From Betaproteobacteria bacterium (lineage in GTDB: Bacteria > Pseudomonadota > Gammaproteobacteria > Burkholderiales > JACQAP01), in NCBI GenBank assembly GCA_025351455.1, contig JANXVW010000084.1, forward strand, positions 1-49,253: a stretch of DNA of 49,253 nt, written 5' to 3'. The translations under genes and the position numbers were made by a program. Positions within the stretch are counted from its first letter, which is position 1; each line of letters opens with the position of its first letter. This document shows positions 7,074-35,027 of the stretch, piece by piece. Below the pieces are notes generated by a model, which had not been told where the DNA came from, made no database searches, and saw only the letters and a program-made list of their open reading frames with translations.

Positions 7074-7523
7074 TCAACTGGTCTGCGGTACCTTGTTGAC
7101 CAGCGCCCAGTACAGGCCCACCTGAGAAACCATTTCAACAAACTTGTCGAAATCGACGGGTTTGACGATATAGCTGTTTACGCCTAGCTGATAGCTTTCG
7201 ACGATGTCGCGTTCTTCGGAGGACGACGTCAGCATGACCACCGGCACTGTCCTGGTTTTGGCGTCCGCCTTCAAAGCGCGCAATACGCCTATGCCGTCGA
7301 TCTTGGGGAGCTTCAGGTCGAGGAGGATTAACTTCGGCGCGCTACTGACTGCCCTTTTCTCGTACTGACCCCGGCAGAACATGAAGTCCAGCGCCTCGAC
7401 CCCGTCCTTGAGCCAGACCAGATTGTTCGACAGGTTTTTTTTGTTCAGTGCCCGCATGGCCAACTCTGCATCCGTTGGATTGTCCTCCACCAGCAGAATT
7501 TCCACGTTCTCAAACCCGGTCAT
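7074..7523 (-). CDS. single-domain response regulator (Rcp1/CheY-like)
   Basis: A 149-residue stand-alone receiver. The ATG at 7523 is preceded by GGAGGGCAAG, a strong ribosome site, so longer upstream readings are discarded. Acidic pocket [12 protein letters not shown], phospho-acceptor Asp in [13 protein letters not shown], the Thr in [12 protein letters not shown] and the Lys in [11 protein letters not shown] are all present. The LKLPKIDG pattern is that of phytochrome-type (Rcp1-like) regulators that pair with PAS-rich kinases. Its start overlaps the end of the CHASE3 kinase by 14 nt, so the two are translationally coupled and almost certainly partners. Output must be by protein contact or phosphotransfer, since there is no effector domain. 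Confidence 0.93.
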
Positions 7524-9681
7524 CTTGCCCTCCTCCGGGCAGAGAGAAAAAGAACGTTGCACCTTTGTCGAGTTCGGCTTCGGCCCAGACCCGGCCGCCG
7601 TGACGCATAACCAGCCGATGCACGATGGCAAGGCCGACCCCGGTCCCGGGAAACTCATCGAGCCTGTGCAGGCGCTGAAACACACCGAAGAGTTTGTCGT
7701 AATAGCGCATGTCAAAACCGACGCCGTTATCCTTCACGAAAAATGTCACGTGGTCATTCGTGCCTTTTGCGGCCAGACCGCCCACTTCGATGCGCGGCGT
7801 TTTCCTGGTCGAACTGTACTTGATCGCATTCGACAGCAAGTTGATCCAGACTTGCTTGAGCAGAGCCGGATCGGCCCTGGCCGCGGGAAGGTCGCGAATC
7901 ACGACTGAGGAGGCATCGATCCCGGGTGCCGCGGCCCGGAGGCTGTCCAGCGCCCCGAGCGCCAGTGATTTCATGTCCACGCGTTCCGTGGATAGAGGCT
8001 GGCGGCCCAGTCGCGAAAAGGCGAGCAAGTCGTCGATCAGCACACCCATTCGCTGACTGTTGTCGCGGATGACTTTCAGTACACGCCGCCCCTCATCGTC
8101 AACCCGGGAGCCGTAGTCTTCCTCGAATATCTTGCTGAAACCGTCGATTGCGCGCAGCGGGGCACGCAAATCATGGGAAACGGAATAGCTGAAGCTTTCC
8201 AGTTCCTTGTTGGCTGCTTCGAGTTGATTTGCCCGGATCTCCAGATGGGCATTGAGTGTCCGGATCGACTCTTCGGCCCGCTTCTGCTCGGTAATGTCAT
8301 CCGAGATGCCCAGCAGATATTGCGGCCGGCCCTCGCTGTCACGCAGGCCTATCTTGCGCGTGCGCAGTATGAGGTTGCCGGTGGCGGCGGTGAGTTTTTC
8401 TTCCGCGATTTCCACCATCGCGTCTTGCGCCAGCACCTCCCGGTCCTTGGCGACGAACTGATCCGCCTGTTCCTTGGGAAACAACTCATGGTCGGTCTTG
8501 CCGATAAGGTCCTCGCGTGACATGCCGAGCAGCTTTTCCTCCGCCTTGTTTATCCTGGCGAACCTCAGCGTCTGCGCCTCCTTGACGAAGATCATGCTCG
8601 GGATGTTTTCGACCACCGCGTCGAGAAAGGCATTGGCCTGCTTGAACTGGAATTCCACCTGCTTCAACGCAGTGGTATCGAACATTGTCGTGCGGCTCAT
8701 CACATAGTTGCCGTGTTCGTCGTGCAGGGCAACGGCATTGACGGCTACCGGGAACGTGCTGCCGTCCTTACGCACCATGGTGTACTCGAGGTCCGCAGTC
8801 TTGCCGTCCCGTATGAGCTTGGGAAAGTTGTCCATCACGGTTTGCCTGCACTCCGGCGCCACGATGTCGATGAATTTCAGTTTGCCGATGACCTCGTCGC
8901 GATCGTATCCGAGCCAGGCCAACTCGGTGTCGTTCATGCGCACGAAGGTCCCGTCCCGGTCGACGGAGTGGTAGCCGCAGGGCGCGCCGTTGTACAGGCT
9001 CGCGGTCTGCGTTGCCGCCGCCTGCGCCGCTTTTTCGGCGATGGCACGCTGGCCTATTTCCCTGCGCAGGAGGGCAAAGGCGATGATCAGCATCGTCATG
9101 CTGGTCAGCGTGCCCACGAAGATGATCGCAGAGGCCACCCTCGAACTGCGTCGCGATTCCTCTGCGCGCTGGACCAGGAGGTCTTCTTCCCTCACCCGCA
9201 TCCGGCTTACCAGGCCACGTATCTTGTCCATCGTCTGCTTGCTCTCGCCGATGTGCCGTCGCGCCGGTTCGGAAATGAGCACCGGCGTGCTGCCGGCCAT
9301 CTTCAGAAAGACGGCCGCCTGCTGCAGGCGATATTCGACCAGTTTCTCGAGGTCGCGGATGCGTTGCTGCTGTTCCTCGTTATCGGAAGTAAGCTGCTTG
9401 AGTCGGCGCATGCGGGCCGGGATGCTGGCCAGTCCATCGGTGTAAGGGACGAGGAAGATTTCCTGGCGTGAAATGAGATAGCCGCGGACGCCCGTTTCCA
9501 CATCCTTGAGGTCGGAGAGCACTGCTTCGGTCTCGCGCAGCACGCTTTGCGTGTGTTCGACCCACCCCGCCCTTTCCACAAAACCCTGCAGGCTGACATA
9601 AGAGACGGCCGACATGCCGGCCACGATGGCCAGCGCCGCGCAAAAGCCGATGACCGGCACAGGGTGGTTAGCCGAGTTCAT
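7510..9681 (-). CDS. CHASE3-PAS-PAS sensor histidine kinase
   Basis: From the chosen ATG at 9681 this is a 723-residue membrane kinase. Two transmembrane helices (about 8-30 and 184-206) bracket a periplasmic CHASE3 sensor ([15 protein letters not shown] region). Two cytoplasmic PAS domains follow (about 229-339 and 349-464), then HisKA with phospho-acceptor His503 ([18 protein letters not shown]) and HATPase_c with [17 protein letters not shown] and GTGVGLAI boxes. The [11 protein letters not shown] form is that of phytochrome-like kinases. An upstream in-frame codon at 9849 adds a Pro/Ala-rich leader without membrane or sensor character, so 9681 is preferred. It overlaps the downstream single-domain regulator. 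Confidence 0.92.
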
Positions 9682-28133: not shown

Positions 28134-29118
28134 CCTCGCGGTCTTGCTTGCACTCGCCATAGCGCTGCCCTTCCTGGTCAGCAATTACCGGGTGTTCCAG
28201 CTCAACATGGTGCTGGTCTACGCTATCGTGCTGCTGGGACTGAACATACTGACCGGATTCAACGGCCAGATCTCGCTTGGACACGGTGCTTTCTATGCGA
28301 TCGGCGCCTATGTCGCCGCGATCCTGATGGACCATTTCGGTTGGCCGTACTGGACGACGCTGCCGGCGGCAGGCGTCGTGTGTTTCGCGTTCGGCTTTCT
28401 GTTCGGCCTGCCGGCGCTGCGGCTGCGCGGCCACTACCTGGCGCTCGCCACGTTCGCCCTGGCTGTCGCGATGCCCCAGTTGCTGAAGTACAAGCACGTC
28501 GAACAATGGACAGGCGGCGTGCAGGGCATCGTGATCGTGAAGCCCGATGCGCCGTTCGGCCTGAAGATCACGCCCGACCAATGGCTCTACCTGTTCACGC
28601 TGGCGATCCTGGTCGTCATGTTCGTCGTCGGCTGGAATCTTTTGCGCGGCCGCACCGGACGCGCCATCGTGGCGATTCGCGACCACCCGATGGCGGCGGA
28701 GGCGATGGGCGTGAACATCGCGTTGTACAAGACCCTCACGTTCGGGGTCAGCGCGCTTTACACCGGCGTGGCGGGAGCACTCGGCGCGATTGTCGTCCAG
28801 TTCGTGGCCCCCGACAGTTTCACCGCCGGCCTGTCGATCAATTTCCTGGTGGGCATCGTCATCGGCGGCGTGGGCTCCATTTCCGGTGCGTTCTACGGCG
28901 CGCTGTTCATCCAGTTTGTGCCCAATTTCGCCGACCAGATTTCCAAAGCGGCACCCTGGGCGATTTATGGCGTGTTTTTGCTTGCTTTCGTTTATCTGAT
29001 GCCGGGCGGGGTGGCGGGCTTCGTGCGGCTCGCGTGGTTGCGGATTCGGGGCGTGCGCACCCGGGCGAATGCTCGATCCGCATTGAGTGAAATGACTGAA
29101 CCGAGGAGGACACCATGA
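28087..29118 (+). CDS. livM: branched-chain-type ABC transporter permease LivM
   Basis: A permease with multiple hydrophobic spans; LNILTGFNGQISLGHGAFYA is the LivM family signature and AIRDHPMAAEAMGVNIALYK the coupling loop. I start it at the ATG at 28087 (343 residues), though no good ribosome site is visible and a GTG at 28015 is also in frame. With this start the first 15 codons after ATG are the AATCGCCA repeat, so the N-terminal tail is repeat-derived and the ancestral start was probably overwritten. It ends in a 4-nt ATGA overlap with the binding-protein gene. Confidence 0.9.
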   Translation: MFNRQIAKSPNRQIAGLAVLLALAIALPFLVSNYRVFQLNMVLVYAIVLLGLNILTGFNGQISLGHGAFYAIGAYVAAILMDHFGWPYWTTLPAAGVVCFAFGFLFGLPALRLRGHYLALATFALAVAMPQLLKYKHVEQWTGGVQGIVIVKPDAPFGLKITPDQWLYLFTLAILVVMFVVGWNLLRGRTGRAIVAIRDHPMAAEAMGVNIALYKTLTFGVSALYTGVAGALGAIVVQFVAPDSFTAGLSINFLVGIVIGGVGSISGAFYGALFIQFVPNFADQISKAAPWAIYGVFLLAFVYLMPGGVAGFVRLAWLRIRGVRTRANARSALSEMTEPRRTP

Positions 29119-30317
29119 AAAGGAAACTGCTGGCAGGGTTGGGATTGATGGCCTGCGTTTTGGCATCGAGCGCGGCGGCGGAAAAAAAATACGACCCCGG
29201 CGCGACGGACACCGAGATCAAGATTGGACACACCAATCCCTATAGCGGGCCGGCATCCGCCTACGGCACTATCGGGCGTTCGGAGGCCGCTTACTTCAAG
29301 ATGATCAACGAGCAGGGCGGAATAAACGGCCGCAAGATTGTGTTCATCAGTCTTGATGACGGCTACAGCCCGCCCCGCACCGTGGAACAGGTGCGCAAGC
29401 TGGTCGAGGAAGAACAGGTGCTGCTGTTGTTCCAAAGCCTCGGCACACCGAGCAATACCGCGATTCACAAGTATATGAACGCCAAAAAGGTGCCCCAGTT
29501 GTTTGTGTCAACGGGCGCGACCAAATGGGGAGATCCGCAGAACTTCCCCTGGACCATGGGCTGGCAGCCAAACTACCAGACCGAAGCGCACCTTTACGCC
29601 AAATATCTACTCCAGAAAAAACCCGCTGCCAAGATCGCGGTGTTGTACCAGAACGACGATTACGGCAAGGATTATCTCAAAGGCCTGCGCGACGGCCTGG
29701 GTAGCCAGGCGGACAGTCTGATCGTCAGCGCGGTCAGCTATGAAGTAACCGACCCCACGGTGGATTCCCAGATCGTCACCTTGCAAGGATCTGGAGCGGA
29801 CGCCCTGTTCATTTTCGCGACGCCGAAATTCGCAGCCCAGGCCATTCGAAAGACCTATGACGTGGGCTGGAAGCCAATGATGTTCCTCAACAACGTATCG
29901 AGTTCGGTGGCGAGTGTCCTCCAGCCAGCCGGGCTGGAAAAATCCATAGGATTGGTGACCGCCCTTTATTTCAAGGACCCAACCGATCCCCAATGGGCGA
30001 ACGATCCGGCAATGAAAGAGTGGCAGGGAATGATGAAAAAGTACTACCCGGACGGGAACCTGAGTGACGGTTTCAACGTGTTCGGATACCTGGCGGCGCA
30101 GACTCTGGTCCAGGTGCTCAAACAATGTGGCGATGAGCTCACGCGTGAGAACGTCATGCGCCAGGCCGCCAACCTCAAGAACCTGGCGCTGCCAATGTTG
30201 TTGCCGGGAATCAAGATCAATACCAGCCCCACGGATTTCTATCCGGTCGACCAGATCCAGCTTGCCCGATTCGATGGCAGACGCTGGGTATTGTTCGGGG
30301 AAGTGCTCGGCAAGTAA
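29115..30317 (+). CDS. ABC transporter periplasmic binding protein (LivK-like), copy 1
   Basis: A 400-residue secreted binding protein with signal peptide (LLAGLGLMACVLASSAAA) and the LivK/peripla_BP_6 fold: EIKIGHTNPYSGPASAYG at the start of the mature domain and INEQGGINGRKIVFISLDD. GAGGAGGA precedes the ATG, which overlaps the livM stop. It is the ligand-binding subunit of the transporter. The G-x-S-A-Y-G class binds amides, urea-like compounds or aromatic acids as well as branched amino acids; the ligand is not decidable here. Confidence 0.94.
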   Translation: MKRKLLAGLGLMACVLASSAAAEKKYDPGATDTEIKIGHTNPYSGPASAYGTIGRSEAAYFKMINEQGGINGRKIVFISLDDGYSPPRTVEQVRKLVEEEQVLLLFQSLGTPSNTAIHKYMNAKKVPQLFVSTGATKWGDPQNFPWTMGWQPNYQTEAHLYAKYLLQKKPAAKIAVLYQNDDYGKDYLKGLRDGLGSQADSLIVSAVSYEVTDPTVDSQIVTLQGSGADALFIFATPKFAAQAIRKTYDVGWKPMMFLNNVSSSVASVLQPAGLEKSIGLVTALYFKDPTDPQWANDPAMKEWQGMMKKYYPDGNLSDGFNVFGYLAAQTLVQVLKQCGDELTRENVMRQAANLKNLALPMLLPGIKINTSPTDFYPVDQIQLARFDGRRWVLFGEVLGK

Positions 30318-30419
30318 AACAATGCTGAGAGGCTCGCGGCGTTTGGGAGGACGCATGTTCCCAGCCGCCCGCGAATAATCACTACCGCCGGTGATAATCG
30401 CCCGGAAGGGGAAACCGTA

Positions 30420-31621
30420 TTGAAAAGAATTTTCGCATTTCTTGCGATGACGCTGGCCCTGGTGATTGCACAAACCGGCCATGCGGAAAAAAGCTACGGA
30501 CCGGGTGTGACCGACAGCGAGATCAAGATCGGCCAGACCATGCCTTACAGCGGTCCGCTGTCCGCATTCGGCACGATCGGCCGAGCCCAGGCCGCCTATT
30601 TCGAGATGATCAATGCCAGGGGCGGGGTCAACGGGCGCAAGATCAAGCTGCTTTCGCTCGACGACGGTTACAGTCCGCCCAAGACCATCGAGCAGACGCG
30701 CAAGCTGGTCGAATCCGATGAAGTCCTGCTGCTGTTCAGTTCCTTCGGCACGCCGCCGAATACGGCTGCAATGAAATACCTGAACGCGAAAAAAGTGCCG
30801 CAGCTCTTCATCGCCGCGACCGGCATGAAGTGGGGCGATCCGAAAAACTTTCCCTGGACGATGGCGTTCCTGCCCAGCCAGAAGACCGGCACCGCGGGCT
30901 ACGTCAGCCATCTGCTGAAGACCCGCCCGGACGCAAAAATCGGCGTGCTCTATCAGAACGATGACTTCGGCAAGGACTATCTCAAAGCGCTGCGCGATCA
31001 GTTGGGGAGCAAGGCTGCGTCGATGGTCATCGCGGAGGCATCGTATGAATCTACTGATCCGTCGGTCGATTCGCAGATCGCGACCCTGCAAGGATCCGGC
31101 GCAGACACGTTTTTCAGCTTCGCCTCGCCAAAGTTTGCCGCTCAGTCCATCCGCAAGGCCTACGATATCGGCTGGAAGCCGCTTTTTTTCATTCCTTACA
31201 GCGCGCAATCGGTTAATGCCGTGCTGCAGCCGGCCGGCCTCGACAAGTCGGTTGGCGTGATCTCCTCGGCCTATGTGAAGGATCCGACCGATCCGCAATG
31301 GAAGGGCGACGCGGCGACCAGGGAATGGCTGGCCTGGATGAAGAGCTATTATCCGGAAGGGGACTTGTCCGAGATCTACAATGTGTATGCGTATACCAAC
31401 GCGCAGTTGCTGATCCAGGTACTCAAGCAGTGCGGCGATGAACTCACGCGTGAGCACGTGATGAAGCAGGCGGCGAATCTGAAGAACTTCGAACTGCCCA
31501 TGCTGTTGCCGGCGTACGCATCAATACCAGCGCGACCGATTACGACCCGATCAAGCAGCTGCAACTCATGCGCTTCGACGGCAAGGAGTGGGTTCGCTTT
31601 GGCGAGGTGACTGGCCCCTGA
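30420..31621 (+). CDS. ABC transporter binding protein, copy 2, frameshifted near 3' end
   Basis: A paralogue of the preceding binding protein, starting at a TTG with GGAAGGGG upstream and a signal peptide (MTLALVIAQTGHA). As sequenced the frame runs to 31610 but its last 30 residues are not family-like (ARPITTRSSSCNSC). Restoring one G near 31511 gives LPGVRINTSATDYDPIKQL then MRFDGKEWVRFGEVTGP and a stop at 31621, aligning to the end of copy 1. A single-base deletion or a sequencing error is therefore likely. The last ~35 residues form part of the C-terminal lobe, so the mutant protein may be unstable. Confidence 0.9.
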
Positions 31622-31624
31622 CCA

Positions 31625-31684
31625 CTACAGGGCGGCGGCGCCTGCCCGGGCGACGATGCCGTCCGGGAACAGGTGCAGGGCGAG
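31625..31684 (-). pseudogene. 3' relic of a second GlcG/HbpS-like gene
   Basis: On the minus strand the sequence encodes LHLFPDGIVARAGAAAL followed by a stop. The intact gene at 33362-33760 ends MQSFQDGIVARAGAAAL and a stop. The proteins match at 14 of 17 positions but nearly every codon differs at its third base, so this is the remnant of a divergent paralogue and not a recent duplication. In-frame stop TAA lies immediately upstream, at the edge of the lower-GC block. Confidence 0.85.
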
Positions 31685-31804
31685 TTATCAGCAGGTCTAT
31701 CTAGTAATGCGGAATGAGGGATTTCAGGGAGTTACCGCGCCGGCTAGTCCAGAATTGATTGAGCCGCCTCCGAGTCCACAATAACCATTGCTCTGTCTTG
31801 CACT

Positions 31805-32686
31805 ATGATCGAACGAACATTGTTTGCCTATTTGAATATCGAGCATCCAATGGTCGCGTGGGAGGTTGCTATCGGAAGGCTAAAATCTTCCCGCAACCAT
31901 TCAAGCGAAAAATTCGGAATCTCAATGTGGGCGTTCTCAATGTTGCAACGCTACGCAGAGGGAAGAATGCCCGCCCGATTCATAAACGAATTGGTGTTGG
32001 AACAGAGACGGCTCGCTATCAATCCATTCTTGGTGTCGAGAATGCAGGGGCTTTACTTTTTCAAGTCTGAACACGACGCAATAGCGGCCCTGAATCGGTG
32101 GGGTCTGCCGCATAAAAAAAAGTACATTAGTGCGATCGATTTTTCTGCGTCCGCATTGACGGAATTGGACTCAGAATGGATTACTAACAATCTGCGAAGA
32201 AAAGCCGAAAAAGATGACTGGATGGATTCGTACTGGCGAGGCGAAATCGCCGGAGAAAATACACTGACCGAAGTATTGGCTATGGGCTCTGGATTTGTTC
32301 TGAACAAGGAGTTGCGCATAGAGTCATATAAGAAGATTTACGGAATGTGGCCCGACGCTTCCATATTGTTGGCGGCCGCCTGCTGTGGATTTTCTCAGTG
32401 TAATTTGAACGAGATTGCTTTAGTAAAGCCAGAACTACTTACGGTTGGAAATGCGGTTGAGGGGCGATTTTTTATATACATGACCGAGTTCGACAACAAT
32501 CAACACGCGATAATGGATGCCATCGAAGACTGCAAAAGGAATAACGAATGCCCACCGTATCGGGCGCCGGACAATGCTGAACACTTTTTTGCAGTGCCGG
32601 ACCTGCGTCACCTCGCCTTCCGATTCGAACATCCTGGGACGTTGACCGCATTTGAATCCGTTCATGATGCTTCGTATCAGAAGTAA
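31805..32686 (+). CDS. orphan protein of unknown function (lower-GC block)
   Basis: A 293-residue soluble protein with no signal or membrane segment and no family I recognise. Noticeable pieces: GLYFFKSEHDAIAALNRWGL, SYWRGEIAGENTLTEVLAMG and LLAAACCGFSQCNLNEIALV. An N-terminal region with FF-S-E-H-D-A and a central Y-W-x-G-E segment faintly recalls ADP-ribosyltransferase-like folds, but this is weak. No catalytic motif is confirmed. The local base composition is lower in GC than the flanks (about 38% GC at 32281-32340, versus 65% at 37981-38040). It precedes another orphan gene by about 100 nt. Real gene status is supported by length and codon composition. Confidence 0.6.
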   Translation: MIERTLFAYLNIEHPMVAWEVAIGRLKSSRNHSSEKFGISMWAFSMLQRYAEGRMPARFINELVLEQRRLAINPFLVSRMQGLYFFKSEHDAIAALNRWGLPHKKKYISAIDFSASALTELDSEWITNNLRRKAEKDDWMDSYWRGEIAGENTLTEVLAMGSGFVLNKELRIESYKKIYGMWPDASILLAAACCGFSQCNLNEIALVKPELLTVGNAVEGRFFIYMTEFDNNQHAIMDAIEDCKRNNECPPYRAPDNAEHFFAVPDLRHLAFRFEHPGTLTAFESVHDASYQK

Positions 32687-32790
32687 AAGTTTTGGGCGGT
32701 CTTCGCAATTCGACTGCCCGCCGATATCGAGTGGCGGAATATGACAGTTTGTTCATAGGATATTCAGCCGTCAAATTGGGGAGCCGCGCA

Positions 32791-33261
32791 ATGAGATTCA
32801 ATGGCACAACGGCTCATAGAACGGGGGGCTTGACTACAGAAGGGCACGCGCCAAGTGAAAGCCTAATTCAGAAATTGAATCCGCAACGCGAGGTGGGGAT
32901 TCTAAAGGCGACGGGATGGACTCAGTTGGCTACAGGCTCGTTGAATCTTGTGAGTGTGAAAGAACACGTACACACCGAACTTTTACGTGAACAGCCTGTT
33001 TATGAGGAACGGGGAACCGACATCAAGTACCCGACGGCGTCCGCAGGGATACCGCTCGCGCGCGTTTCCTATCGGTACTATAGTGGGCGAGTGGATTTCG
33101 GCAGCAAAAAAGAAAACGTTCTGGTGCGAATAGCAGAGGTGCCCGCCAGTAAAACCATCGTGGAACTGTTTTCGCAAGAGAAACTTCGCGTCAAACTAGG
33201 CATCGAAGTTGGCAAGGAAAAGGAAGTCGAAGTCGTTGTGTTTCATCGCAAGGAGAAATAG
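32791..33261 (+). CDS. orphan protein with riboflavin-kinase-like (DUF120) C-terminus
   Basis: A 156-residue protein from the ATG at 32791, which has GGGGAG 7 nt upstream; an in-frame start at 32692 overlaps the preceding gene's neighbourhood and has no ribosome site. The middle (GILKATGWTQLATGSLNLVS) and the end (TIVELFSQEKLRVKLGIEVG, then acidic VEVVVF) resemble archaeal-type CTP-dependent riboflavin kinases: a G-T/S-L-N-L strand followed by an E-L-x-S-x-x-x-L-R-x-x-L terminus. That resemblance is from memory and low confidence. Second gene of the lower-GC block. Confidence 0.55.
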   Translation: MRFNGTTAHRTGGLTTEGHAPSESLIQKLNPQREVGILKATGWTQLATGSLNLVSVKEHVHTELLREQPVYEERGTDIKYPTASAGIPLARVSYRYYSGRVDFGSKKENVLVRIAEVPASKTIVELFSQEKLRVKLGIEVGKEKEVEVVVFHRKEK

Positions 33262-33361
33262 AGCGCCCACTGTAGCTGCGGTGGACCGCATGCTTGGCGG
33301 TAAATGAAACGGGTACAACGACAACGGAATCCGCGAAGCCAGAACGTTCGTGCGAGAATCG

Positions 33362-33760
33362 TTAGAGCGCCGCTGCCCCCGCCCTCGCTACAATCCCATC
33401 CTGGAACGATTGCATTCCCGATACGCCGATCGCACCGACGAACTTTCCGTCCTTGACGAGCGGTACGCCGCCCTCGAGGGGGACGGCTCCAGGCAGGGCC
33501 ATCATGACGATACGGCCCTCGGCGACATTGTCTTCAATCGCTTTGGTGGGACGCTTGAGCAGGATCGCGGAGCGTCCTTTTTCCTCGGCGATCCTGCTGG
33601 AACCCTTCTGCGTTCCGTCGATGCGTTCCAGGTACATGAGGTGGCCGCCGTCGTCGAGGATGGCGATGACCATCGGCCAGCCGTTGCGGTCGGCCTCGGC
33701 GCGCGCCGCCGCGGCGATGCGCTTTGCGTCATCCAGGGCCAGGATCAATTGTTGAAGCAT
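33362..33760 (-). CDS. GlcG/HbpS family protein
   Basis: A 132-residue protein of the GlcG/HbpS (DUF336) family: AKRIAAAARAEADRNGWPMV, IAILDDGGHLMYLERIDG and GAIGVSGMQSFQDGIVARAG are typical. Members bind heme or cobalamin, or act as small companions in glycolate and diol metabolism operons. Its ATG lies 14 nt after the stop of the frame-corrected amidohydrolase, so the two are one operon. Function in this cluster is unknown. Confidence 0.92.
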   Translation of the reverse strand: MLQQLILALDDAKRIAAAARAEADRNGWPMVIAILDDGGHLMYLERIDGTQKGSSRIAEEKGRSAILLKRPTKAIEDNVAEGRIVMMALPGAVPLEGGVPLVKDGKFVGAIGVSGMQSFQDGIVARAGAAAL

Positions 33761-33774
33761 CGGTGCGTCTCCCG

Positions 33775-35027
33775 TCAGTGCACGGAATCGAAGAGATTCT
33801 TGTGGATGCGGCCGTCTTTCATGACGAGCTTGATGTTACCCGGGACCTGAAGCAGCCTGACATCGTCATGCGGCTCACCGGCGACCACCACAGGTCGGCC
33901 AGGAAACCTTCCGCTATTTCGCCCGCCCGGCCTTCCAGCATCATGGCCGCCGCGCCTGTCCTCGTCGCGGCGACCAGCGCTTGCGTATGGGAGTAACCAA
34001 AAAATTTGACGAAATGGCCGATATCGCGCGCGTTAGTACCATGCGGCGTCCATGGAAAACCGTAGTCTCCGCCCACCAGCACGCGCACGCCGCGCTTGCG
34101 CAACTCGGCAAATACACGCTTCGCGCATTCGAACTGGTGAACCACACCGGCCGCTTCGGCCTTTTCATAGGTGATGCCCCACTCCCCGGCCTCGTACATG
34201 AGGTTGTGCAGCAGCCCGATTGCGGGTGCTACGAATATGCGCTCGCGCGCCGCCTCCAGGAGGTCCAGACATTCCTCGTCGGCATATTCGCAGTGATAGA
34301 GGATGTCGATTTTGTGCCTGAGTGCGAGCTTGATCGAGGCCGCGGCCCGGACATGGGCAGCGACGCGCTTGCCGTGCGCATGCGCGGTTTGCGCCGCCGT
34401 GCGGATTTCCACCTCGTTCATGACATTCTGGTCGGAACGCGAGTTCGGGGTGGTCTGGTTTCCCGAGATATTCAGCTTGATTGTGTCGACGCCTTCGCGG
34501 ATCAGCATTCGGCATGTTTTCGCCATTTCGTCAACGCCGTCGACGATCATGGCGATCGATTCTCGATGGATATGCATCTGGCGCTCGTCACCGAGATTGC
34601 CGGTATTGGTCAGTTCGGGACCGGCGGCGAGCATGCGCGGTCCCGGGATGTGGCCGGCGTTGATTTCGTTGCGCACCACTACGTCAATGCGCGGTTTCGC
34701 CGACCCGCCGCTGACACAGGAGGTAAATCCGGCTTCCAGCACGACCCGCGCATGTTGCGTGGTGCGCAGGGTGTGTTCTTCGGGCGGCACGTCACCGGTG
34801 TCGGCGATGCTGGCCTTGTGCAGAAAGGGCAGGTGGGCGTGCCCGTCGACCAGGCCGGGAATCAATGTATGGTCGGCAATGTCGAAGGCAATGGCGGATT
34901 CCGGAAATCGTGTGCCCGGGGACTGGATACGACTTATGCGGTTGCCGGCGACCAGTACATCAGCCGCAAACGCAGGCCTGCCGCTGCCATCCCAGACCTT
35001 TCCACCCCGCAACAGAACCGCGTCCAT
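33775..35027 (-). CDS. metal-dependent amidohydrolase, frameshifted near 3' end
   Basis: Start at the ATG at 35027 with GGAGGG upstream (MDAVLLRGGKVWDGSGRPAF). The HXH metal motif is GLVDGHAHLPFLHK; further ligands are around VAAHVRAAASIKLAL and ILYHCEYADEE, and the last Asp region VLVGGDYGFPW. As sequenced the frame departs at about 33891 (ADLWWSPVS) and stops at 33819. Restoring one base gives ADLVVVAGEPHDDVRLLQVP then NIKLVMKDGRIHKNLF, a normal family ending, with a stop at 33775. So one base is missing, by decay or sequencing error. Imidazolonepropionase-like amidohydrolases hydrolyse cyclic amides, aryldialkyl esters or dipeptides; substrate unknown. Confidence 0.9.

What the first reader, a model, noticed from the sequence alone, without database searches (positions are those of the whole stretch)
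31685..33340. Lower-GC block with two orphan genes inside a transport/catabolic cluster
GC is visibly lower than the flanks, and the two plus-strand genes have no neighbours of related function. The second looks like a CTP-dependent (DUF120) riboflavin kinase, an archaeal-type enzyme that is unexpected in such a genome; the first is unrecognised. A pair of this kind could be a transferred defence or metabolic module.
Basis: partly seen in the sequence, partly recalled or inferred. Interest (0 to 1): 0.6.

Follow-up and report, generated by a model that had tools for sequence, protein, structure and literature searches.

The report
Mobile two-gene cassette with ADP-ribosyltransferase
A small foreign DNA cassette has inserted into the end of a bacterial gene and rebuilt that end with different codons; it carries a gene that looks like a phage-type ADP-ribosyltransferase and a distant relative of an archaeal riboflavin kinase, possibly as part of virus-bacterium conflict.

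Summary
In detail: 31685-33340 is the lowest-GC stretch of its size (49.3% vs 60.5%), and two of three same-genus relatives have an empty site. The insert (~31666-33403) lies in the 3' end of an HbpS-like gene. The native last 12 codons and stop remain on the left; on the right the gene is completed by a copy in which all 13 codons differ synonymously: 3'-end restoration by an integrated element, without an integrase. ORF1 is an ADP-ribosyltransferase-fold protein of the DUF2441/BC2332 group whose relatives were found mostly on viral contigs and plasmids, the collections I mainly searched. ORF2 is a very remote DUF120/riboflavin-kinase relative, below curated cut-offs and lacking two motifs; the genome has a normal flavokinase. 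DUF120-like genes lie in defence-type islands in one other genome. The pair is not conserved: 0 of 8 ORF1-homologue loci. Best reading: mobile cargo, an NAD-using conflict effector plus a nucleotide-binding barrel that may act with it. Function and partnership are inferred.

The parts
31666..33403 (.). Inserted foreign segment (~1737 bp), bounds at the GGAAC shared by both junctions
   Evidence: Empty site in G251 and G340; junction positions
31625..31665 (-). Left remnant: native last 12 codons and stop of the HbpS-like gene, cut off from the gene
   Evidence: 9 of 13 codons identical to G340; encodes DGIVARAGAAAL*
31805..32686 (+). ORF1, 293 aa, ADP-ribosyltransferase-fold protein of the DUF2441/BC2332 group
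   Evidence: Model pLDDT 78.6, pTM 0.77; 2AUA Z 9.6; profile match to 2AUA E 8.6e-8
32778..32783 (+). Shine-Dalgarno-like GGGGAG before ATG 32791
   Evidence: Sequence
32791..33261 (+). ORF2, 156 aa (alternative TTG start 32692, 189 aa), remote DUF120/CTP-dependent riboflavin-kinase-like protein
   Evidence: 14.8 bits, 0 of 10000 shuffles, no unrelated frame as high; columns G13, G18, G49, N52, E125, L136, G141 invariant in the 7-row alignment A5
33362..33402 (-). Replacement 3' end of the HbpS-like gene: 12 codons and stop, each synonymously different from the left remnant
33362..33760 (-). HbpS-like (PF03928) target gene, reading frame intact
   Evidence: 116.8 bits, cut-off 25

Best explanation
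The block is a small integrated element, or the remnant of a larger one, that recombined into the 3' end of an HbpS-like gene and supplied a replacement 3' end so that the host gene stayed whole (shown by comparison with empty sites; the recombinase is inferred and must have acted in trans or been lost). Its cargo is ORF1, an ADP-ribosyltransferase-fold protein of the DUF2441/BC2332 group (fold and homology shown), which most likely binds NAD+ and transfers ADP-ribose to a target in the same cell during phage-host or element-host conflict (inferred). ORF2 is a remote relative of the DUF120 riboflavin-kinase barrel (shown statistically by sequence, fold not shown) that has probably lost kinase activity and works as a nucleotide-binding partner or regulator of ORF1 (inferred, weak).
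For: Insertion: flanks joined in two of three same-genus relatives; all 13 terminal codons synonymously replaced; against G340 the last 13 codons are 3 identical/9 synonymous versus 73/41 in the rest of the gene, p 0.012, against G251 p 0.032, and no such contrast between G340 and G251 (p 1.0). ORF1: six-sequence AlphaFold2 model pLDDT 78.6, pTM 0.77; 2AUA/BC2332 Z 9.6, rmsd 3.5, 153 aligned, then MbcT, APE0204/Tpt1, diphtheria toxin catalytic domain and DarT at Z 4.1-2.4; 2AUA by sequence profile E 8.6e-8; a 2AUA segment is DUF2441 at 162 bits; DUF2441 is listed in Pfam's ART clan (PMC7955679, passage seen). Glu156, invariant in 7 of 7, lies at the start of strand 155-165. Context: phage structural genes in L025, L026, L043; PADLOC matches to PDC-M38A/B, ApeA and PDC-M62A/B within about 2 kb of three homologues. 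ORF2; three DUF120-like genes of G284 in defence-type islands.
Against: No integrase in the block and no long identical att core (36 of 53 positions match between the two ends). ORF1 is below the DUF2441 cut-off (13.4 vs 25 bits), and no invariant His or Arg was seen in its first strand. Matches to enzymes of known activity are at Z 4.1 or less. The pair is not conserved: 0 of 8 ORF1-homologue loci carry a DUF120-like gene. Neither protein matches PADLOC. No sigma-70-like promoter was found in the block. HHalign gives ORF2-DUF120 probabilities of 0.7-10.4% only. The context of ORF1's homologues is biased by the collections searched. The DUF120-like genes in islands come from one genome and two of the three are near-identical.
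Confidence: 0.5

Rival explanations
1. Two unrelated cargo genes: ORF1 is a stand-alone ART effector (or phage lysogenic-conversion or counter-defence enzyme) and ORF2 merely rides next to it.
For: ORF1 homologues occur without a DUF120-like gene at 8 of 8 distinct loci, and 8 DUF120-like loci have no ORF1 homologue; there is a 104-nt gap between the genes. AcrIF11 is a precedent for a phage- and plasmid-encoded ART that acts on CRISPR (PMC12421852, start of abstract seen).
Against: Same orientation, adjacent, in an element with no other recognised gene; both have relatives in conflict contexts.
Confidence: 0.4
2. Toxin-antitoxin pair: ORF1 is a growth-arresting ART and ORF2 its antitoxin.
For: MbcT (of MbcT-MbcA) and DarT are among the structural matches; [quoted passage not shown] one G284 DUF120-like gene directly follows a SIR2-like fragment.
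Against: None of the eight other ORF1-homologue loci has this partner; the presumed toxin gene comes first and the genes do not overlap.
Confidence: 0.2
3. Metabolic module: ORF2 is a working CTP-dependent riboflavin kinase.
For: GSLN and E...KLR blocks kept in order; canonical bacterial copies beside UbiX/UbiD-type genes exist.
Against: Not over any DUF120 cut-off; SGxGEG and DGD replaced; host has a normal flavokinase domain (142 bits); ORF1 is not a flavin gene.
Confidence: 0.06
4. Assembly artefact: foreign DNA wrongly joined into this contig.
For: Low GC; assembly in 353 contigs with 3.4% contamination; both flanking genes carry frame breaks near their ends.
Against: Both junctions fall at the corresponding place of one gene and keep its reading frame and peptide, with the native remnant on the other side; a random join would not do this.
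Confidence: 0.04

Closest known systems
BC2332 (PDB 2AUA), DUF2441 family, Pfam ART clan
   Same: Profile match E 8.6e-8 and fold Z 9.6 over 153 residues; shared E..VR..FP..PSRL, Y..G and E...G blocks
   Different: ORF1 is longer (293 aa; the 2AUA chain has 224), is below the DUF2441 cut-off, and its residues after ~171 are outside the match; the depositors call 2AUA a hypothetical protein
phrog_5663 (phage proteins of unknown function)
   Same: ORF1 E 8e-4 and homologue L027 E 2.3e-12
   Different: Weak for ORF1; PHROGs gives no function
MbcT and DarT toxins (ART fold; for MbcT recalled)
   Same: Same fold at low Z (6fkg 4.1; 7omy 2.4)
   Different: No sequence match found; no recognisable MbcA-, DarG- or macrodomain-type partner in the block
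CTP-dependent riboflavin kinase MJ0056 / DUF120 (PF01982)
   Same: G-S/T-x-N and E...LR blocks in order; 14.8 bits to a broad profile
   Different: Below cut-off, lacks SGxGEG and DGD, HHalign probability at most 10.4%
   Same: Single-domain ~140-150 aa DUF120-like genes in mobile/defence-type DNA
   Different: 17-22% identity to ORF2; neighbours are restriction genes, a SIR2-like fragment and toxin-antitoxin genes, not DUF2441-like
SGI1-type elements in the 3' end of trmE
   Same: Integration at the 3' end of a protein gene (PMC8409611, start of abstract seen)
   Different: Target is HbpS-like; 1.7 kb with no recognised integrase or transfer gene

Membership tests
DUF2441 (PF10386) | Score over Pfam's curated cut-off | tested here: not met
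   ORF1 13.4 bits, cut-off 25; homologue L003 passes with 32.3 bits, five others tested do not
DUF2441 (PF10386) | Homology to a member shown by profile | tested here: met
   A4 profile to 2AUA E 8.6e-8; 2AUA segment is DUF2441 at 162 bits
ADP-ribosyltransferase superfamily | ART fold | tested here: met
   2AUA Z 9.6; MbcT, APE0204/Tpt1, diphtheria toxin and DarT chains at Z 4.1-2.4; only the 2AUA match is strong
ADP-ribosyltransferase superfamily | Catalytic Glu at the front edge of the late strand | tested here: met
   Glu156 invariant in 7 of 7 aligned, at start of strand 155-165; equivalence of the strand assumed, not superposed
ADP-ribosyltransferase superfamily | His or Arg in the first strand | tested here: inconclusive
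   No invariant His/Arg in strand 2-9; active site not mapped
ADP-ribosyltransferase superfamily | NAD+-dependent activity | not testable with these tools
   Needs biochemistry
DUF120 / CTP-dependent riboflavin kinase (PF01982) | Score over Pfam's curated cut-off | tested here: not met
   No match at E 10
DUF120 / CTP-dependent riboflavin kinase (PF01982) | G-T/S-x-N and E...LR blocks in order | tested here: met
   Alignments
DUF120 / CTP-dependent riboflavin kinase (PF01982) | N-terminal SGxGEG and C-terminal DGD blocks | tested here: not met
   Alignment; their role in catalysis is recalled, not looked up
DUF120 / CTP-dependent riboflavin kinase (PF01982) | RibK barrel fold | tested here: inconclusive
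   Single-sequence model pLDDT 41; Foldseek list uninformative
Toxin-antitoxin module | Conserved adjacency of the two genes | tested here: not met
   0 of 8 distinct ORF1-homologue loci
Known anti-phage systems (PADLOC 2.0.0) | Match of either protein to a defence model | tested here: not met
   0 families at E 10
Site-specific integrative element | Empty site in relatives and restored target 3' end | tested here: met
Site-specific integrative element | Own integrase | tested here: not met
   Neither ORF1 nor ORF2 matches an integrase; the overlapping frames of 88-111 aa in the segment were not scanned

The most novel reading that the evidence does not exclude
A minimal non-autonomous mobile cassette (1.7 kb, no integrase) rebuilds its target gene end with a fully synonymously recoded copy, which would keep the host gene working while making the junction a poor template for recombination back to the empty site, and it carries a two-gene NAD/nucleotide conflict system in which a DUF120-like barrel, stripped of kinase motifs, senses a nucleotide and controls an ADP-ribosyltransferase. 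DUF120-like barrels would then be a recurrent, unrecognised component of bacterial defence islands beside NAD-using enzymes.
Probability: 0.15. Interest if true: 0.8.

Novelty: new variant of a known kind. Interest (0 to 1): 0.5.

Why it matters
If ORF1 is an active ART it adds the DUF2441/BC2332 group, which has a solved structure but is deposited as a hypothetical protein, to the NAD-using enzymes of phage-host conflict. If DUF120-like barrels are part of such systems, a fold known from archaeal flavin metabolism has a second career in bacterial mobile DNA. The junction, with 13 of 13 codons synonymously replaced, is a clear case of protein-level restoration of a target gene by a very small element that has no recognised recombinase of its own.

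Tried and rejected
ORF2 homologues by single-sequence search: none in plasmids, phages, viral contigs; no confident one in 229 class, 120 order and 398 phylum genomes (overlapping samples; the few hits at E 0.005-0.05 and at most 18.5 bits were taken as chance and not followed up). ORF1 by single sequence: none in phages; own genome only among 229 class genomes. DUF120 models for G284's gene: no relative in viral contigs or plasmids.

Fold of ORF2: the single-sequence model (pLDDT 41) is not usable; its Foldseek list (50 of 55 matches shown, none at E 0.001 or better) showed no riboflavin kinase, which says nothing either way.

ORF2-DUF120 link, results against: HHalign probabilities were only 0.7-10.4% over all profiles tried. 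Local pairwise scores to MJ0056 and Ta1064 were reached by 51 and 25 of 1000 shuffles. With an 8-sequence profile 18 of the 4009 shuffles reported (5000 made) scored as high as ORF2's 4.4 bits. With 13 sequences 0 of 10000 shuffles, but one unrelated frame (L053, 12.9 bits, HicB-like by eye) exceeded ORF2's 11.8. With 15 sequences: 14.8 bits, 0 of 10000; of 592 background frames 13 reach it, namely 12 DUF120-type frames and ORF2 itself. With the six divergent sequences: 14.3 bits, 0 of 10000, same kind of list. With nine canonical sequences only 6.1 bits, 16 of 10000 shuffles and L053 above it. With the three polysaccharide-type sequences 5.3 bits, 21 of 10000 and one unrelated frame (L007) above it. 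The background frames come from my own loci, and the profiles were enlarged after the first looks, so these are not independent tests.

Pantoea: the ORF1 homologue lies near an annotated heme-binding gene, which suggested the same insertion site; no repeat of that gene's end was found in the 35 kb taken and its C-terminus differs, so this was dropped. A scan of viral contigs for the HbpS-like 3' end gave nothing, and the block's DNA has no match in plasmids. ORF1 residues after ~171-195 were barely tested by the structure search. The viral structure library had no match at E 0.001 or better (50 of 284 matches shown); the two best by probability (A0A4D6AQJ3; Gordonia phage JuJu A0A516KR81) were not followed. 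The phage homologue L027 has no match in E. coli genomes at blastn sensitivity or in phage records by tblastn.

Papers: 'DUF2441' 2 papers; 'DUF120' with 'riboflavin kinase' 0; 'CTP-dependent riboflavin kinase' 2; 'CTP-dependent riboflavin' with 'defense island' 0; 'DUF120' 15, of which 10 were listed and none is about riboflavin kinase by title (the term also matches longer DUF numbers); of 106 papers on integration sites and islands 10 were listed, none holding 'HbpS-like'. I found no report of DUF120-like genes in defence islands in these searches only; most subscription papers are not held.

Full report
Observation. The block 31685-33340 has GC 0.493 in a window of 0.605 and is the lowest stretch of its length. 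It holds two plus-strand ORFs: ORF1 31805-32686 (293 aa), and ORF2, best read from ATG 32791 to 33261 (156 aa) because of GGGGAG 7 nt upstream. Third-position GC is 0.54 in both, against 0.72-0.84 in the seven flanking genes measured. The flanks are a branched-chain amino-acid-type transport cluster (two BPD_transp_2 permeases and two Peripla_BP_6 proteins) on the left, and an HbpS-like gene, an amidohydrolase, a short-chain dehydrogenase, a DAO-family oxidoreductase and a histidinol-dehydrogenase gene on the right. The assembly is 353 contigs, 98.8% complete, 3.4% contaminated.

Insertion. All three other genomes of the genus held match the left flank. In G251 and G340 the right flank follows directly, with the two flank matches overlapping by 36 and 47 bases; in G297 no right-flank match lies beside the left one. 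The overlap is the 3' end of the HbpS-like gene. In the window that end exists twice. The left copy (31625-31665, minus strand) reads GAC GGC ATC GTC GCC CGG GCA GGC GCC GCC GCC CTG TAG and has 9 of 13 codons in common with G340. The right copy, which completes the intact gene, reads GAT GGG ATT GTA GCG AGG GCG GGG GCA GCG GCG CTC TAA. The two encode the same DGIVARAGAAAL* and share not one of 13 codons. The right copy's last 13 codons are also unlike the rest of its gene when compared with relatives: against G340, 3 identical/9 synonymous versus 73/41 (Fisher p 0.012); against G251, 2/10 versus 49/47 (p 0.032); G340 against G251 shows no contrast (p 1.0). If codons were redrawn from the usage of eight neighbouring genes, no identity in 13 would have a chance of 4e-4; with even synonymous usage 0.015. 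Both were computed after seeing the pattern. Outside the shared GGAAC (31666 and 33403) the two ends differ, and over 53 positions 36 match. This is the anatomy of an element that recombined into the 3' end of a protein gene and brought a replacement end. No integrase was recognised, so the recombinase acted in trans or was lost (inference).

ORF1. Pfam gives only a sub-threshold DUF2441 match (13.4 bits, cut-off 25). A plasmid homologue passes the DUF2441 cut-off (L003, 32.3 bits). Homologues came from two plasmids, one Castellaniella MAG contig (39% identity), four distinct viral contigs and a more distant Acinetobacter plasmid protein found with L027 (122 bits to the family profile). A profile of seven matches BC2332 (2AUA) at E 8.6e-8, and the matched 2AUA segment is DUF2441 at 162 bits. 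The ORF1 model (pLDDT 78.6, pTM 0.77, six sequences) has 2AUA as its best solved match (Foldseek E 0.01; VIA Z 9.6, rmsd 3.5, 153 aligned), followed by MbcT 4.1, APE0204 3.5, Tpt1 3.2, diphtheria toxin catalytic domain 3.0 and DarT 2.4. By themselves the low Z values would be weak, but apart from two rows (7mwr 2.8, 4nkb 2.1) the listed proteins are ART-fold (for MbcT and APE0204 from recall), and Pfam's ART clan includes DUF2441 (PMC7955679, two passages seen). Glu156 is invariant in the family and begins strand 155-165, which fits the ART glutamate at the front edge of a late strand as that paper describes it (passages seen). No invariant His or Arg was seen in the first strand, so catalysis is plausible, not shown.

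Context of ORF1 homologues. L026 has phage tail, baseplate and connector genes, L043 terminase and portal-type genes, L025 a portal fragment; in L043 the gene lies between the terminase subunits. L027 carries UmuDC-like frames by eye, and the one frame tested there had no PHROG match. PADLOC models match near L025 (PDC-M38A/B), L026 (ApeA, E 1.7e-9) and the Pantoea plasmid (PDC-M62A/B). The Legionella and Acinetobacter plasmid copies have annotated RelE-type toxin neighbours, the former also an annotated type I-F cas1 2.5 kb away. The Castellaniella copy has no such neighbour by eye. Seven of eight distinct loci are plasmid or viral, but those are the collections mainly searched; the one genome-contig scan returned a single relative.

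ORF2. No hit in Pfam, NCBIfam, PADLOC or solved structures beyond chance. DUF120 itself is absent from the genome at E 10, and the genome has a normal flavokinase domain (142 bits). Searching DUF120 over 250 genomes of the order gave four genomes with a match at E 0.01: one over the cut-off (G310, whose neighbouring frames include UbiX/UbiD-like ones by eye) and sub-threshold proteins in G284 (three), G267 and G804, the last probably false (HicB-like by eye). The G284 proteins match the riboflavin-kinase profile in HHalign at 94% and miss Pfam's cut-off (20.4-23.7 vs 25 bits). Searches with a seven-row alignment including ORF2 gave one further genome of 379 in the order (G851, E 8.6e-6, inside a long protein) and one of 378 in the phylum (G468, which passes Pfam's cut-off at 28.9 bits). 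Against a profile of all 15 sequences, not including ORF2, ORF2 scores 14.8 bits; 0 of 10000 shuffles and no unrelated frame of 592 reach it. Narrower profiles and HHalign give much less (see Tried and rejected). Shared blocks are G-S-L-N and E...KLR in order; SGxGEG and DGD are missing. I take ORF2 as a true but very distant DUF120 relative that is unlikely to be a riboflavin kinase.

Context of DUF120-like genes. All three G284 genes sit in defence-type DNA: one in an island with Eco57I/IIG-type methylase and T5orf172-ResIII genes, ArdC and a tyrosine integrase; one near an EcoRI-type methylase, a GmrSD/HNH restriction gene, TumE and (by eye) HigBA-like genes; one next to a SIR2-like fragment, an ArdC-like frame (by eye, from similarity to the first) and a DUF4011 helicase matching PDC-S37/Hhe. 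They are one genome and two are near-identical, so they count as one or two events. The other five bacterial DUF120-like loci seen (Azoarcus and G310 with UbiX/UbiD-type genes; G267, G468, G851) did not look like defence islands by annotation or by eye, but were not scanned with PADLOC: 3 of 8 bacterial loci outside the window, all from G284.

Pairing. A profile including ORF2 found no DUF120-like gene at eight distinct ORF1-homologue loci, and the ORF1 profile found no homologue at eight DUF120-like loci (stretches of 3-35 kb). The pair is therefore specific to this element as far as seen.

Verdict. A transferred cassette is shown. ORF1 as an ART-fold mobile-element protein is well supported. 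ORF2 as a remote DUF120 relative is moderately supported. A joint defence function is a hypothesis. Interest 0.5.

Noticed in passing
window 31440-31630: The second periplasmic-binding-protein gene, just left of the block, changes reading frame near its C-terminus relative to the same-genus homologue in G251.
   Followed up: partly
window 33770-34000: The amidohydrolase gene right of the block also changes frame near its C-terminus compared with G251 and G340; with the first case this may point to assembly indels here or to two decayed gene ends.
   Followed up: partly
window 29115-31607: Two tandem Peripla_BP_6 paralogues, about 68% identical in DNA, with further tandem copies in G251 and G340.
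   Followed up: no
L044 3017-5976; L050: Canonical bacterial DUF120 genes beside UbiD, UbiX and NUDIX genes (Azoarcus) or UbiX/UbiD-like frames (G310, by eye), suggesting a role in prenylated-FMN supply.
   Followed up: no
L069 around 7290-7650; L068 8261-8815; L060 1022-2890: A divergent DUF120-like group; by eye one is fused in a long protein with LmbE-like and methyltransferase-like parts and one lies among glycosyltransferase-like genes.
   Followed up: partly
L051 1489-2388: A DUF120-like gene directly after a SIR2-like fragment, next to a resolvase-like frame.
   Followed up: partly
L043 7989-8921: ORF1 homologue between small and large terminase genes of a phage or prophage contig.
   Followed up: partly
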